Source: Gaertneriomyces semiglobifer (taxonomy: Eukaryota > Chytridiomycota > Chytridiomycetes > Spizellomycetales > Spizellomycetaceae). Taken from it: DNA of 64,000 nucleotides. Under the pieces are notes generated by a model, which worked only from the letters and a program-made list of their open reading frames with translations, ran no database searches and had not been told where the DNA came from. How positions within the stretch are numbered: position 1 is the stretch's first letter; each line of letters opens with the position of its first letter. Position numbers and translations under genes: made by a program. Location: positions 310,001 to 374,000 of the forward strand of contig JAHLKF010000008.1 of the NCBI GenBank assembly GCA_025558075.1. The letters are read 5' to 3'. Below are positions 7,686-15,632 of the stretch, piece by piece.

Positions 7686-9714
7686 ATGTATTCACGCTCC
7701 GAGCGCAAGTTCCTCGCGACTCCAAAGGACCCACATCTGGGCCCCGGGAGCTATGATCCTGATACACCCGCCGTTCCCGTTGGCAAGTCCCGCGGAAATG
7801 AAGGGTAAGTAAGAAGCAGGTCCGCTAACAAAGCCATCCGCTAGGAGGCTATATAGAAAATAAACTAAGGGTATAACACTTGTCACAGATATGCTCCATT
7901 TACGTCTCTAACGCCCCGTACATCGTACTTTGACGAGATCACCCGCCTCACGGAAGCACCGGCGCGACCCGCACCAGGGGAATACCGGACTGAGTTGTTA
8001 AAGCTCGCACTGGATAAGCCTTGGAAGGCGCCGCAGTGGGGTAAAAGTACCGTAAAACGGTTCGACAATTACGACCGCAAGAAAAGCGAGGTACCTGGTC
8101 CCGGATGGTATGATGTCAATGAGGGAATGAAGCCGAAGCAAGGCCATGATGACGGAGGAGATGTGCCAAACGCACTCAAGTTGATCGTCCGCGAGAGTAA
8201 AGTGCATCCTTTGATGAACCGGCCGGTGCCGGTCGATGAAGAAGGATATCAATACGACTTGGAAGAGCGTGAGAATAAGCTTCTAGCGAAGCAAGATGCG
8301 CCTGGAATGGCTCCACGCCCCAAGATTGTATGGAAGAGAAAGTTTGGGGCACCTAGCATCCCAGGACGAGATGCGGGAGGATTTGAAGAGAGAGAAGGTA
8401 GGTTTTTCGTCCAATCAGCGGGACGTTCACTCGGAAAGCGCAGCTGAACAACTGCTAGATGGACAGCTCCATCCCCGTCCCAGAATTCCCCCACCACGGC
8501 CGAAATCCGTATCCGCTCCTAGTTCGATCTCAATAAAAAGCGGCCCCACCTTCGCTCGGGCACACAAGTCATTGTCGCTCACGCTTCCATCCGCCTCAAC
8601 ACCGGCGCCCAATAGCTATAATCCGTTACAAGCGTCTATCCCGGTTGAAAAGGAGAAGACGCGACGGGTGGGCTTAATGGGGCTGAGCCCCTGTATGCGT
8701 TTGACAGACGAGATATTAAAGACCGAGAAACGAAATGGGATACCAGGTCCCGGTTCTTACGAAGTGAAGGATTTAAAAGGCTCTGGGAAAGCGAAAGGCG
8801 GGCAGCGTTGGGATTTGGGAGGAACAGGGCATGAGCTGCCGAGCCACATGCATGGGGAACAAATGTATACTCCAGGACCCGGGGCATATGATGTGGATCG
8901 AACGCGACGCTTTGAGGACAGAGAGCAACGAGAACGTGACAGAACTGCACCGTTTGCAACCACGACTCCTCGATTCCCCCAGCAACACGATAGCAGGCCT
9001 GGACCGAATGCGTACAATGTCGCTGAATCTGAAGAGAAGCTGTTGAACCAAAGCAAGTCTCTGAAGGGGCGAGTTGTTGGTGGCTTTGGTAGTGTCAGCG
9101 AGAGATTTCAAACTGCACGATCGGAAAGGGCGCCTGCACCAACCACCTATCAGCAAGAAATCCAAATGTCAAAACCCAGTCGCCCGCAGACCCGGATGTC
9201 AGCGCTGCAAACGCACGGGCCATTACCGATTACTCTTGGAAACATCATTGTCAATCCGGCCAATGCCCGAATTCCTGTGTTTGGGAGTCAGACTGATCGC
9301 TTCCCCGACCATGCGGGTGATATCCCGAGTGTTGGAGCATATGAAGTGGAGCGGGCATTCAAGAAATTGGTTGGGGAAAAGGGTGTATGGAAGAAACCTG
9401 GAGCTGCTTTAAGTTTAGCAAAGGAAAGCGGAAGGAGGGACATTTTCAGCGGTAAGCATCCATGTGTTTGACCTTTTTTGATGCCCAGACTCATCTCAAA
9501 TGAACGGATTTCAGTCAAAGAGCGCCTGCCTGCACCCAATCAGTACACACCTATGGTGCTAACGCGGCGTGACGTTCATCGAGGAGAGGGATTCTTAAGC
9601 GTACCTCGCTTTGAAGACTTGCCAAAGGACAAGGTGCTGGTTCCCGGACCAGGGAGCTACGAGACCCCAGCCGACTTGGTTCGAAAAACTTACAATGTTA
9701 CATTAGCGGTTTAG
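7686..9714 (+). CDS. Sperm-tail PG-rich repeat protein, STPG2-like
   Basis: Four exons (7686-7804, 7889-8397, 8444-9451, 9515-9714) encode 611 residues; the introns are 84, 46, 63 nt long and the splice phases agree. At least nine copies of the PG-rich repeat are visible: LGPGSYDP, APGEYRTE, VPGPGWYDV, IPGPGSYEV, TPGPGAYDV, RPGPNAYNV, APNQYTPM and VPGPGSYETP among them. Repeats of this type occur in proteins of axonemes and sperm tails (STPG1/STPG2 and relatives), some of which lie inside the lumen of doublet microtubules. Presence of the family implies a motile flagellated stage. The ATG at 7686 places the first repeat at residues 19-26. Human STPG2 is somewhat shorter. Confidence 0.88.
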
Positions 9715-10133: not shown

Positions 10134-13100
10134 ATGGTGGCAACAAGCGTAGAGCTTGCGCCAGTAGCGCGCGGTGGTGCATCATTGATACTTACCTGGA
10201 ATATTGCCGGGCGGTGAGTTGGGTCGAGCGGATGTTTACCAAGTGTCTTGCACCTCTGACAAAGTTGTTCTAGTAATGTTCTGGTCGTCGGGGGGAACGA
10301 CATTGCAGCACAGCGGGTATTCTTTGCGTTGGAGGCAGATTCTTATGTGACTGTTGTCGCACCAGAAGATCAGTTGTCTGCCGCGTTAAAGGCTCGGGCC
10401 CATCGTGGAGAAATTCAATGGTTCAATCGGCACATAGAAGAGCGTGATTTGGATGGGAAATCTATTGTCTTAATTGCAGCGGAAGATCATGTAGAGTGCC
10501 GCCGTGTGGCCCACCTTGCCAAGCAAAGGCGGATACCCGTTAACGTCGCTGAAGCCCCGGAACTTTCTGACTTCTGGTTCACATCTACACATCGTGATCA
10601 TGCCATTCAAATAGCCGTATCTTCCAATGGAAACGGACCGAAAATTGCCAGCAAGATTCGTCAGTTGGTCGCAAACGCGTTGCCCACGAATGCCGGGCTC
10701 GCTGTTCAACGACTTGCTGTTCTTCGTCAGAAGTTACGCGAAGTGGATCCGGCTGCGGCCGCTAGAAGGCAAAAGTTCGTCACCCAAATCTCTGAAACAT
10801 GGCCTTTCGATAAGCTGGCAGAGTTGACGAATGAGGAGATGGAAAGCATTGTCAAGCGTTACCTTGCCGGTGCTGCTGAAGTTAGGCCTACCAAACTTGC
10901 CCGTGGCACGTTGAAGTTCATCGAGGCGTCTATCGATGTGGAGCAGTTGACCAAAGCTGCTTATAGCGCTATTGGATCAGCAGATGTTGTAGTCGCTGAC
11001 GCAGATGTGTCTGACGAAGTTCTTGCGCTTGTGTCTGGACAGCTCGTGGTTTTGCCGGAGGGGACAACCCAAGGAGAAGTATTTTCCCACCTTGATGACA
11101 TGACAGAATCGGTTCATGAAGGTCGCCATGTTGTCAGGCTCGTTGCAGCCGATGCCATTACTTTTGGTGAGGCCGCCGTCGAGATTGCCTATATTCGCGA
11201 AAGTGGACAAAGCGTGCAAGTTCTTACAGGAGCATCGCCTGTATTCAACCTGCTTGCGTCTGGTGGTGTCCAGCTTTCGGGAAATGTTACCCTCATTCGG
11301 GCTCAATCCGACAACTATCCCGTATACGCTCCAGGCGCGACCTTGGTGTTGGCGTTGACTTCGGATCGCATCCGCCATGTAGTCAAGACACTTTCGGACG
11401 CTGGATACCCGGCCGCCTGCGGGGCCTCCTTCCTTCAAGGGCACGAGGTCCTTAATGCAACTCTGGAATCCATTATCCTCGCAATCAAGAAGGCTGATAT
11501 TTGTGGCTCCGGGCTTTTGGTTGTTAAAGGAAATGGTGCAGCCGTCAAGCATCAGCACGTTACTAATGCTGTGGACCACAACAGCCAATTGGAAAAGAAG
11601 ATTTCTTCAGTAGTTGCCATTCGGAAGCCCCATTCTGCAGCCCTTCTAGGTACACTGAAGCTTGTGAGCGGTTATACTGCCGCGGCACACGTGGCCTATG
11701 GACTCAGCGACATATCCTTCGTCTACCCGGTTGGAACATCCGCGTACCGTGGTGATGACATTTTCCGGTGGTGCACTCAGGGAGTGGTTAACGCTCATGG
11801 TCAATCACATAAGGTGGTGTCCATGTCGACTCGTGCTGGGGCAGCCAGCGCAATCCACGGTGCTCTGTCCACGGGCGCTAACATCAGCGCTATCCTCTCA
11901 TCCGAGGCACTGCCTCTTATGGTCCCTTCGATGTACGGCATCGCTCGCTCTGGCAAGCCGGCCGTATTTCACGTGGCTGCTCAAAAGATCGACCACGCCT
12001 TTACTGTTTCCCACGACTATTCTGACGTTGTCTCGGTTGCGCACACCGGCTTCGGTCTCTTGAGCTCGACAAGTGTACAGGAAGCGCATGACATGGCGAT
12101 TGTCGCGCACATTGCCGCTTCGCTATCGAACTCTCCAATTGTGCATTTCTTTGATGGTGCTCGAACTGCACAGGAGACCAGTAAGATTCAGGTGCTCGAG
12201 TACTCAGAGGTGAAAGACCTGCTTCCCAAAAGCGCCGATGGACATATGAACCTGTACGATGCTGTAGCCACCGCGATGACGACACTTGGTGAGGCATGTG
12301 GTCGCCAGTATAAGCCTTTGGAGTACACTGGTCCCAAGGACGCCGAGCTGGTTGTCGTTGCAATGGGCCCTTCAGTGCACCTTGCACAGGAGGCCATCAT
12401 TAAAACCGGAATCAAGGCGGGTATCCTGAACATCCGCCTTTACCGTCCGTGGAATCCCCAAGAGCTTGTACGCCAGTTACCGAAGAATGTTAAGAGGATT
12501 GCCGTCATTGATCAGACTCGTGGCTTGTTGTTTCTGGATATCACCTCCGCTTTTTACACCGGCCATTGGGAGGGACGTATTCCTCAAGTGGTTACTGGAC
12601 AATTTCAGACAGGCGTACAGAGCTTTTCTGTTGAAGCGGTGGGAGACTTCATATCTGCTGCTGAGAATGGGAAAGTCTCCAGACAGCACGCTATCACGGC
12701 GTCCAGTGGCAACGACGACGACACCTCAGCCAACGTCCATCAGGCTATCTTCTGGGATGTTCAAAATGCTGGTACCAGGGTTGTTGCTGAGAAAGCGCTT
12801 GCTCGCCTGGAGGCTGGTTTGGCAGGCCATTACGAGACTCTGCAATCGGTCACTGTTCATGAGGATGTTCATCTTGAGCCTATTAGTGCAACACACGTTC
12901 GCTATGGCACCGAGAAGACCGCGCTGGCCAGCCTTGTCAAAAATGCTGATTACGTTGGCGTACACTCCTTGGAAGTCTTTCAAAGGGTCAATGTGGCGAG
13001 AAGTGTGAAGAGAGGCGGATCTCTAGTCGTCAACACTGGCTTGTCTCAAGCGGATTTGGAAAAGGAAATCCCTGCCTCAGTCAGATCAGAGCTTTCAAGA

Positions 13101-14696
13101 CGCAATGTGAAAGTTCTCGCTGTAGATGCCGACGGCATCGCGAAGAACTTTACGCTCTTCAAGGGTCCCACCAAGGACTACATCAACAATATCCTATCAG
13201 CGGTATTCTTCAAGCTTGCGAAGGGAATTGATTTCGGCGGTGTGATGAAGACGTTCGGAGCAGAAATTGTCCATGGGCAAGCTGACCGCAGCATTGTGTA
13301 TACCACCTTGGGTGCCGTGAAGCGTGGACTGGAGAGCATCCGGGAGATGCACTTGACGACCACGGATGAGGTTTCTGAGGAGCTCCCTACTGTTCTCTCT
13401 GGATCTATCGGGTCCAAAAAGCTCGAAGTGAAAGAACCTGAAGAAAGCACCGTCCGCCATGTGGCCAAGTACCACGAGATCTGTTGGCCGGTCATTTTCC
13501 CAGAGACATATCAGCTCAAGAAGCATCTTCGCCCGGACGTTGAAGATGCATATTTGGTGAAGGTAACCGAAAACCGTCGGGTGACCCCGGAAAACTATGA
13601 CCGTAACGTGTTCCACATGGAAATGGACATTAAAGGCACAGGGCTCAACTATGCCATTGGTGAAGCGCTCGGTGTGCATGGACACAATGATCTGGAAGAT
13701 GTGTCTCAGTTCCTGAAGAACTATGGGGCCAACCCTCACTCCATTGTGTACGTGACAAGAGAGAAAGCGGATGGCACGAGTGTCTCGGAGGCCCGGACCG
13801 TTGAACAGATGTTTACCCAAGTCCTGGACGTATTCGGGAAACCCGGCCGCAAGTTCTACCAAGAACTACTCAACTACGCCAAGGGTTCGGAACATGAGCA
13901 AATTCACGACTTACTTTCCGATGCTGATGCCATGCAAAAGTTTACCGATGAGGAAACTCCTAGTTACGCTGATCTTCTTGAGATATTCCCGAGTGCACGC
14001 CCATCCATTGATGCATTGATGGACATGATTCCTGAGATAAAGCCGAGACATTACTCGATCTCGTCCGCACAAAGCATGCATCCGGACTCGGTTCACCTAT
14101 TGGTCGTGCTTGTGGACTGGAAGACGAAAGGCGGAAAGGCAAAGTATGGTCAATGTACGCGATACTTGTCTCGAGCCAGCGTGGGGCAGACGCTCACAGT
14201 CACTATCAAACCGAGTGTGATGAAATTGCCTGCAAGCCATCAACAACCGGTCATTATGTCCGGTCTGGGAACTGGTATGGCCCCGTTCCGCGCATTTATC
14301 GAAGAGCGTGCCTTCCAAAAGTCGAAGGGCATCAAGGTCGGACCCATGGTGCTCTACTTTGGATCGCGATACCGTGCTATGGAATACCTCTATGGTGAAG
14401 AGATGGAGGCGTACCACCTTGACGGTGTGCTGACGCACCTCCGGTTGGCCTTCTCTCGCGATCAGAAGCAGAAGATCTACATTCAGCACAAGATTGAAGA
14501 GGATCGTGAGCTTCTGAAGGAATACATGATTGACCAGGAGGGAGCGTTCTACCTCTGCGGCCCTACGTGGCCGGTGCCGGATGTGAGAGACGCACTCTTG
14601 TCGTCGTTTGAGCTGGGCGTGGGAAGTCGCGACCGCGCGGCGGAATTGCTGGAGGAGCTGAAGGAAGAGGAACGATATGTATTGGAGGTCTACTAG
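10134..14696 (+). CDS. MET10: Siroheme-synthase-like / sulfite reductase flavoprotein fusion
   Basis: Two exons (10134-10213, 10274-14696) encode 1500 residues; the 60-nt intron joins the N-terminal strand so that it reads TWNIAGRNVLVVGG. Residues 1-235 match Met8/CysG dehydrogenase-ferrochelatase (NVLVVGGNDIAAQ, VTVVAPED, VNVAEAPELSDFWF, then its dimerisation helices). Residues 237-448 follow the CysG/SUMT methyltransferase pattern (SADVVVADADVSDEVLAL, HVVRLVAADAITFG). From about 480 onward it is Met10: pyruvate-oxidoreductase-like domains, an FAD domain with RHYSIS (about 1284) and an NADPH domain with GLGTGMAPFRAF (about 1355) and YLCGPTW (about 1453). The C-terminal half should feed NADPH electrons to siroheme sulfite reductase. 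The N-terminal modules look catalytically impaired: GGN for GGG, Glu120 where Met8 has its essential Asp, and no GGDP or SAM loop. Yeast Met10 is only about 1035 residues. Confidence 0.88.
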
Positions 14697-14831: not shown

Positions 14832-15632
14832 TTAAGCGGACAGAGGAACTTTCGGCTGGACCCTCTTGGCAAACTCGGCAAAAGTCTTGCCTTGAATTTC
14901 TGCGATTTCGAGCTCTAGAGCGGAAGGCTGCCTGCTGCCGTCACCACCAGCAATGGTGCCCGCGCCCCAGGCGCTACCACCGCGAACGTCAGTAAGACTA
15001 GTAAATTGCTGGAATGTGTTTGCGTAACCCAGGGGCACGTAAATGACACCGTGGTGAGCGAGAGTAGACATGAACGTCAAAGCGGTAGTTTCCTGGCCAC
15101 CACCGAGGGACGCGGTGGAGAAGAAGACACCAGCGATCTTTCCGCTAAGAGAACCTTTGGCCCAAAGCTGACCTGTCGCGTCCCAGAACGCACGGACTTG
15201 AGCTGCGCAAAACAAAAATGAAGGGAATCAGTTTTTTTAGCATTTGCAGAGCGCATAAAAACGGATGCATCTCTGAATGTGACACATTCCAACGTACCAG
15301 CCTGGTTTCCGTATCGGGTCGGCATCCCGAAGATGAAGGCGTCATACTGAGCGAGCGTCTCAACGGTTGCAGTAGGCACGGTGGCGTCTTTGGGCGGGGC
15401 ATGCATCTTTGTCAAGATCTCTGGAGACTGCAGTATACGGGTGAGTACCCTGCTTCATGGATCACCATGTAATGCATATCGTTGCGAACAGAATACCAAC
15501 CAATGTTTCAGGGATCTGGTACAGGTTCGCTGTCAGGCCTTGGGCCTGTACACCCTTTTGGATTGCCTTGGCCAAAGTGCCTACATGGCCATACATGGAG
15601 TAGTAGATGATGGCGACCTTGCTGATACCCAT
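14832..15632 (-). CDS. NAD(P)H:quinone oxidoreductase, WrbA/Pst2 family
   Basis: Three exons on the minus strand (15632-15501, 15427-15298, 15202-14832) give 210 residues. The start [20 protein letters not shown] is a flavodoxin-type FMN phosphate-binding loop; [37 protein letters not shown] and the closing GGQETT and GYA blocks are typical of the WrbA family (yeast Pst2, Rfs1, Ycp4). Members reduce quinones by two electrons and protect against oxidative stress. Both introns fall in the same phases as the protein alignment demands. It is convergent with the MET10 fusion gene, 135 bp apart. Confidence 0.9.

What the first reader, a model, noticed from the sequence alone, without database searches (positions are those of the whole stretch)
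10134..14696. Triple fusion: degenerate siroheme synthase on the sulfite reductase flavoprotein
Seen: one continuous frame joins a Met8/CysG-type dehydrogenase-chelatase module (about 1-235), a SUMT-like methyltransferase module (about 237-448) and a full Met10 (about 480-1500). Siroheme is the cofactor of the partner sulfite reductase subunit, so the fusion joins cofactor-synthesis modules to the enzyme that uses the product. Key residues look lost: the dinucleotide loop reads GGNDIA in place of GGGxxA, the essential Asp of Met8 is Glu120, and the SUMT GGDP motif is AADA with no N-terminal SAM loop. Inference: a pseudoenzyme platform that could bind or deliver siroheme, or a regulatory sensor. 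I know of no described protein with this layout.
Basis: partly seen in the sequence, partly recalled or inferred. Interest (0 to 1): 0.88.

Follow-up and report, generated by a model that had tools for sequence, protein, structure and literature searches.

The report
Cofactor-making enzyme relic fused to its user
In chytrid fungi the sulfite reductase subunit carries at its front an old, catalytically damaged copy of the enzyme that makes its cofactor (siroheme); the copy has kept most of its cofactor-binding pocket, so it may hold or hand over siroheme rather than make it.

Summary
Confirmed. One gene (exon 1 10134-10213, 60-nt intron, exon 2 10274-14696) encodes a 1500-aa protein, identical to NCBI's Gaertneriomyces semiglobifer model: a Met8/CysG-type module, a degenerate SUMT-like module and a complete Met10. 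It is neither a join nor a one-off: 26 proteins from 23 chytrid species have the layout, the 22 fused Met8 modules in the tree form one clade (100/100), and 17 of 51 other N-termini hold remnants. This genome, and 13 of the 23 species in all, has a listed stand-alone siroheme synthase, so the fused copy looks redundant for synthesis. In fused modules the third NAD-loop glycine is lost in 22 of 22 and the catalytic Asp (CysG D104) in 15 of 22, while R140, R162, P133 and a basic residue at 27 stay in 23 of 23 and N101 in 21 of 22. The Met8 module is nearly as constrained as in stand-alone enzymes; the SUMT part is eroding. Best reading: an ancient pseudoenzyme that binds the tetrapyrrole and presents siroheme to Met5, the only siroheme-reductase protein found in this genome. 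Binding and delivery are inferred. Ten paper searches found no description.

The parts
10134..10213 (+). exon 1, residues 1-26 and part of 27
   Evidence: N-terminus conserved in Spizellomyces P0002
10214..10273 (+). 60-nt GT-AG intron
   Evidence: splice reproduces the NCBI protein exactly
10274..14696 (+). exon 2, single frame through all modules, stop at 14694-14696
10191..10862 (+). Met8/CysG-B-like module, residues 20-223 (NAD_binding_7, Sirohm_synth_M, Sirohm_synth_C); the intron lies inside
   Evidence: model of residues 28-232 pLDDT 92.7, matches CysG, SirC, Met8p
10296..10298 (+). N35, equivalent of CysG G21 (third Gly of the NAD loop)
10551..10553 (+). E120, equivalent of the catalytic Asp CysG D104
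10935..11408 (+). degenerate SUMT-like (TP_methylase) module, residues 248-405; motifs lost
   Evidence: C-terminal half modelled below pLDDT 50
11691..13238 (+). Met10 PFOR-like part: POR_N, PFOR_II, POR (residues 500-1015)
13542..14567 (+). Met10 FAD/NADPH reductase part (residues 1117-1458)

Best explanation
The protein is the single Met10 (NADPH-sulfite reductase flavoprotein) found in this chytrid genome. Its N-terminus is an ancient, vertically inherited siroheme-synthase pseudoenzyme. Shown: one gene, one clade, change of the NAD-loop glycine in every fused species with that position and of the catalytic Asp in most, retention of most tetrapyrrole-contact side chains, separate siroheme synthase genes in the genome, and Met5 as the only NIR_SIR protein found there. 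Inferred: the Met8-like module still dimerises and binds siroheme or sirohydrochlorin without needing to turn it over, and because it is covalently part of the sulfite reductase complex it holds the product of the stand-alone synthase next to apo-Met5 and helps load it. The SUMT half has no catalytic role and is being lost; its N-terminal part persists, probably as spacer or docking surface.
For: (1) One origin: the 22 fused Met8 modules form one clade, support 100/100; its branching broadly follows chytrid taxonomy. (2) Dissociation, 23 fused species against 32 stand-alone proteins: G21 lost 22 of 22 against 4 of 28; D104 lost 15 of 22 against 0 of 32; R140, R162, P133 kept 23 of 23; basic 27 in 23 of 23; N101 21 of 22; S/T128 22 of 23; basic 166 22 of 23; basic 175 21 of 23. 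In CysG these contact the tetrapyrrole, P133 as platform (PMC7018833, section 7 and passages); [quoted passage not shown] (3) Constraint: fused Met8 module 70% identical between Gaertneriomyces and Spizellomyces, as is the stand-alone one; SUMT 37% against 71%. Over 45 pairs of ten species 45% against 51%; SUMT over 36 pairs 30% against 62%. (4) Clade-specific fixed changes (CysG 109 Cys to Ser 22 of 22; 179 Trp to Phe/Tyr 23 of 23) suggest a new constrained role. (5) One Met10 and one siroheme-reductase protein found in the genome.
Against: No binding or transfer was measured. Kept arginines may serve folding or dimerisation. Enrichment of contact positions among conserved ones depends on the list: strict side chains 5 of 6 (0.067), with P133 and G130 7 of 8 (0.014), but with the other backbone-contact positions 113, 118, 132, 134 only 7 of 12 (0.27). 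W179 and R260, which touch the ligand in CysG, are replaced. Four of 28 stand-alone proteins also have N at G21. In Rhizophydiales-type proteins the module is much altered (Boothiomyces and Kappamyces lack most contact residues), other lineages hold only scraps, and yeast-type Met10 proteins lack it, so it is not universally needed. Seven of 22 fused species keep D104, so chelatase activity there is not excluded. (After the 7-of-12 recount I lowered confidence from 0.50.)
Confidence: 0.45

Rival explanations
1. Structural scaffold: the Met8-like module is kept only as a dimerisation or docking domain that holds flavoprotein subunits together; the pocket is a passenger.
For: The helical part of CysG is called its dimerization domain (PMC7018833 passage); fold predicted with high confidence although chemistry positions are changed; N-half of SUMT kept without motifs; contact positions as a whole are not clearly enriched (7 of 12).
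Against: The charged contact side chains are among the best kept (R140, R162 23 of 23, basic 166 and 175 in 22 and 21 of 23), which a pure scaffold does not obviously require.
Confidence: 0.28
2. Docking partner of the active synthase: the fused module pairs with the stand-alone siroheme synthase (C2 type). In CysG the tetrapyrrole site is built from the Rossmann part of one subunit and the helical part of the other, so a mixed dimer could put one working active site on sulfite reductase.
For: Helical contacts R162, 166 and 175 are kept in fused modules while G21 and D104 of the Rossmann part are lost; two-subunit site in CysG (section 7); stand-alone gene present.
Against: Fused and own stand-alone modules are only 23-39% identical in ten species, so interfaces may have diverged; Rossmann contacts N101, R140 and 27 are kept too.
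Confidence: 0.12
3. Reduced enzyme: dehydrogenase lost, chelatase retained, a terminal iron-inserting domain attached to the user, at least in lineages that keep D104.
For: D104 kept in 7 of 22 fused species, with P133 in all.
Against: D104 is absent in 15 of 22 (Glu in this window); D104N in CysG has 200-fold lower chelatase activity (PMC7018833 passage).
Confidence: 0.09
4. Relict in decay with no function.
For: SUMT part degenerate in 26 of 26 fused proteins and truncated in 20; module shrunk or reduced to scraps in several lineages.
Against: Met8 module constraint close to that of stand-alone enzymes (45% against 51% over 45 species pairs) and clade-specific fixed changes.
Confidence: 0.06

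Closest known systems
CysG (siroheme synthase, Salmonella/E. coli)
   Different: NAD-loop Gly, Asp104 (Glu here) and the SUMT motifs changed; fused to a sulfite reductase subunit
Met8p (S. cerevisiae bifunctional dehydrogenase/ferrochelatase)
   Different: Met8p is a separate active enzyme; here catalytic positions are changed
Met10 / CysJ-type NADPH-sulfite reductase flavoprotein
   Same: PFOR-like, FAD and NADPH domains
   Different: of the named non-chytrid Met10 N-termini tested (such as Lichtheimia, Helicostylum, Phytophthora, Naganishia, Lachancea) only Mycoemilia had a module match
Fungal stand-alone Met8-SUMT proteins (C2 type, e.g. Spizellomyces P0024)
   Same: same two modules, nearest group to the fused copy in the trees
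   Different: D104 in 32 of 32; SUMT motifs present in the ones shown, C2 and P0024 fully and P0053 nearly

Membership tests
Met10 (NADPH-sulfite reductase flavoprotein) | PFOR-like, FAD_binding_1 and NAD_binding_1 domains in order | tested here: met
   POR_N found only here and in Met5
Met10 (NADPH-sulfite reductase flavoprotein) | partner Met5 hemoprotein encoded in the genome | tested here: met
   POR_N + flavodoxin + NIR_SIR ORF on contig C13
Met10 (NADPH-sulfite reductase flavoprotein) | sulfite reductase activity with Met5 | not testable with these tools
   needs protein
Siroheme synthase (CysG/Met8, active enzyme) | Met8-type Rossmann plus helical fold | tested here: met
   NCBIfam cysG_Nterm above cut-off
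Siroheme synthase (CysG/Met8, active enzyme) | GGG NAD loop | tested here: not met
   N35; 22 of 22 fused species lack the third Gly, though 4 of 28 stand-alone proteins do too
Siroheme synthase (CysG/Met8, active enzyme) | catalytic Asp (CysG D104) | tested here: not met
   E120 here; kept in 7 of 22 fused species
SUMT (uroporphyrinogen-III methyltransferase) | GAGPGD loop and GGDP motif | tested here: not met
   neither present here; none of 26 fused proteins has the whole set; below NCBIfam cut-off
Siroheme-binding pseudoenzyme | tetrapyrrole-contact side chains kept | tested here: met
   exceptions: W179, R260, and R137, which stand-alone fungal proteins lack too
Siroheme-binding pseudoenzyme | binds siroheme, lacks turnover | not testable with these tools
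   needs purified protein

The most novel reading that the evidence does not exclude
A dedicated siroheme carrier built into an enzyme complex: a siroheme synthase was fused to sulfite reductase at or before the base of the chytrid lineage (possibly earlier, as the Kickxellomycota protein P0091 carries a related module), lost its chemistry and became a siroheme-loading domain. I recall no known siroheme delivery factor, and the two searches aimed at one (listings seen) showed none by title or start of abstract, so this would be the first.
Probability: 0.36. Interest if true: 0.88.

Novelty: new variant of a known kind. Interest (0 to 1): 0.76.

Why it matters
How siroheme gets from its synthase into sulfite and nitrite reductases is, as far as I know (recalled), unsettled. 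A natural covalent link between a catalytically changed synthase with a largely kept pocket and the enzyme that uses the cofactor makes the question testable: bind, mutate the pocket, measure loading. It is also a broad example, across a fungal phylum, of an enzyme turning into a non-catalytic partner, with stages from full to half to trace in living species.

Tried and rejected
Rejected: assembly join or two genes (26 proteins from 23 species); active trifunctional synthase (motifs); recent or species-specific fusion (trees). The TTG start at 10329 given by the ORF listing is residue 47 or so of the real protein; the residues ahead of it are largely conserved in relatives.

Not settled: whether Mycoemilia scoparia (Kickxellomycota, P0091) shares the same fusion. 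Its module falls inside the fused clade on a very long branch; placing it outside (AU 0.12) or with zygomycete stand-alone proteins (AU 0.065) is not rejected. It has the fused-type Ser at CysG 109. The Met10 core tree (quick, SH-aLRT only) puts it with Mucoromycota, so an older or an independent fusion is possible. Some short N-termini may be gene-model or contig-end artefacts.

Dropped or partial rows: of 88 proteins with a Met10-type FAD core, 26 were the clear fusions, 51 had more than 30 residues ahead of the core and were tested for remnants, and 11 that start within 30 residues were not. The 51 include one non-Met10 flavoprotein (P0021) and some diverged Met10s in which the stretch tested is partly core. 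One search counted one protein per species (P0007, P0034, P0052 dropped) and left out remnants; the trees used 22 fused rows (C. hyalinus also left out). Weak hits P0078 and P0104 lie inside the shuffle range (best of 1020 shuffles 1.6e-5) and were not counted. One search listed 120 of 423 hits, so distribution counts are lower bounds. G21 was 86% conserved in stand-alone proteins and so not in the 45-position table. SUMT identities include linker in truncated proteins. The Met8p G22D result that I recall could not be checked (one search found nothing; paper not held).

Full report
What is there. The window is C8:310001-374000 of a 20.9-Mb genome in 66 contigs. The spliced protein equals NCBI's Gaertneriomyces semiglobifer BC832DRAFT_583897 letter for letter; the species is a chytrid of the order Spizellomycetales. 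Exon 1 (10134-10213) and exon 2 (10274-14696) join over a GTGAGT...CTAG intron into 1500 codons. Pfam finds, all over cut-off, a complete Met8-type module (20-223), a weak TP_methylase match (248-405) and a full Met10 (500-1458). Everything after residue 27 lies in the single frame of exon 2.

The genome around it. Besides the window, the genome has a 630-aa Met8-SUMT protein on contig C2 with GGGKEA, the Asp, GAGPGDPGLL and RLKGGDPF, and a 444-aa protein on C19 with a SUMT domain above the NCBIfam cut-off but a degenerate Rossmann half and no Sirohm_synth_C hit. NIR_SIR and NIR_SIR_ferr hits fall in one ORF, Met5 on C13, which also has POR_N and flavodoxin domains. POR_N occurs only in Met10 and Met5. 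So, within the limits of a six-frame search that scores exon by exon, Met10 is single-copy and Met5 is the only siroheme-reductase protein found.

Distribution. Two N-terminal searches found 5 and then 8 fusions. A third search with a combined query listed 120 of 423 hits. Of the retrieved proteins 88 have a Met10-type FAD core; a Met8-module profile marks 26 of them, from 23 species, at E 4e-50 or better. They include Spizellomyces, Geranomyces, Powellomyces, Thoreauomyces, Rhizophlyctis, Cladochytrium, Nowakowskiella, Synchytrium, Quaeritorhiza, Chytriomyces, Rhizoclosmatium and Siphonaria. Thirteen of the 23 species also have a stand-alone Met8-SUMT protein, counting the own genome's C2 and names listed. 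A profile of the 26 N-termini found remnants at E below 1e-6 in 17 of 51 other N-termini, among them Boothiomyces, Kappamyces, Polyrhizophydium, Irineochytrium, Dinochytrium and Phlyctochytrium planicorne, three unnamed proteins that group with Hyaloraphidium (P0075, P0096, P0102) and the kickxellomycete Mycoemilia; the best of 1020 shuffles reached 1.6e-5. In the Met10 core tree Irineochytrium, Dinochytrium and P. planicorne nest among fused ones, which points to loss (quick method, SH-aLRT only). Hyaloraphidium itself starts at the core and was not tested.

One origin. In the Met8-module tree the fused rows form one clade: 97/99 with remnants and outgroups, 100/99 with Mycoemilia inside, 100/100 for 22 fused against 22 stand-alone rows. 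The clade is separate from the chytrid stand-alone enzymes, and its branching broadly follows chytrid taxonomy (orders recalled).

What was lost, what was kept. In CysG numbering (one protein per species, gaps set aside): the third Gly of the NAD loop is replaced in 22 of 22 fused species (D 10, N 7, T 2, S 2, C 1), against 4 of 28 stand-alone proteins (all N). D104 is kept in 7 of 22, against 32 of 32. By contrast R140, R162 and P133 are kept in 23 of 23, a basic residue at 27 in 23 of 23, N101 in 21 of 22, S/T128 in 22 of 23, a basic residue at 166 in 22 of 23 and at 175 in 21 of 23. R137 is kept in 1 of 23 fused and 0 of 32 stand-alone. These residues hold sirohydrochlorin in CysG (PMC7018833, section 7 read; passages). 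Of 45 positions at least 90% conserved in stand-alone proteins, 21 are unchanged in at least 90% of fused ones. Among the 45, strict side-chain contacts are kept in 5 of 6 (hypergeometric 0.067); with P133 and G130, 7 of 8 (0.014); with the remaining backbone contacts, 7 of 12 (0.27). So the dissociation of chemistry from charged contacts is clear, but a general enrichment of all contact positions is not shown. W179 is Phe or Tyr in 23 of 23, and R260 is not conserved. On the tree D104 changes at least four times, SUMT length at least twice and G21 at least three times.

Constraint. Gaertneriomyces against Spizellomyces: fused Met8 module 70%, its SUMT 37%, PFOR part 50%, FAD/NADPH part 75%; stand-alone Met8 module 70% and SUMT 71%. 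Over 45 pairs of ten species the fused Met8 module averages 45% against 51% for stand-alone (fused at least equal in 6 of 45); over 36 pairs SUMT averages 30% against 62% (0 of 36). The Met8 module is thus held nearly as strongly as in stand-alone enzymes, the SUMT part is not.

Mechanism. Shown: fused, old, chemistry positions changed, charged contacts kept, constrained, redundant for synthesis by motif. Inferred: it binds siroheme or its precursor, dimerises, and helps load apo-Met5. [quoted passage not shown] Rivals are a dimerisation scaffold, a docking partner of the active C2 enzyme, a leftover chelatase where the Asp is kept, and a functionless relict. After the recount I lowered the carrier reading from 0.50 to 0.45 and the novel case from 0.40 to 0.36, and raised the scaffold from 0.25 to 0.28.

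Prior work. Ten full-text searches of open-licence PMC papers gave no description of such a protein in what I saw. I saw passages of PMC4102429, PMC7018833 (and section 7), PMC5068951 and PMC6240589, and only listings of the rest. Subscription papers are not covered. Databases hold the proteins under automatic names such as 'siroheme synthase domain-containing protein'.

Verdict. The pseudoenzyme reading is supported, binding is plausible by sequence, delivery is untested. Real, conserved, apparently undescribed; a new variant assembled from known domains.

Noticed in passing
window 8296-9471 (+): Upstream ORF with SHIPPO/PG-rich sperm-tail repeats (PF07004, E 3.8e-12), fitting a flagellated (zoosporic) fungus.
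   Followed up: partly
window 14832-15600 (-): Downstream minus-strand gene that looks flavodoxin/WrbA-like by eye; no Pfam match for the 126-aa ORF scanned.
   Followed up: partly
L003 1459-2793 (own genome, contig C19): Second SUMT gene with a degenerate Met8-type Rossmann half lacking the helical-domain hit: another partly dead siroheme-synthase module.
   Followed up: partly
P0091 (Mycoemilia scoparia): Kickxellomycete Met10 of 1071 aa with a Met8-like module; an older or a second fusion.
   Followed up: partly
P0047, P0089: Siroheme synthase models of 1312 and 1068 aa with extra Pfam domains (PF07859, PF01876); probably merged gene models.
   Followed up: no
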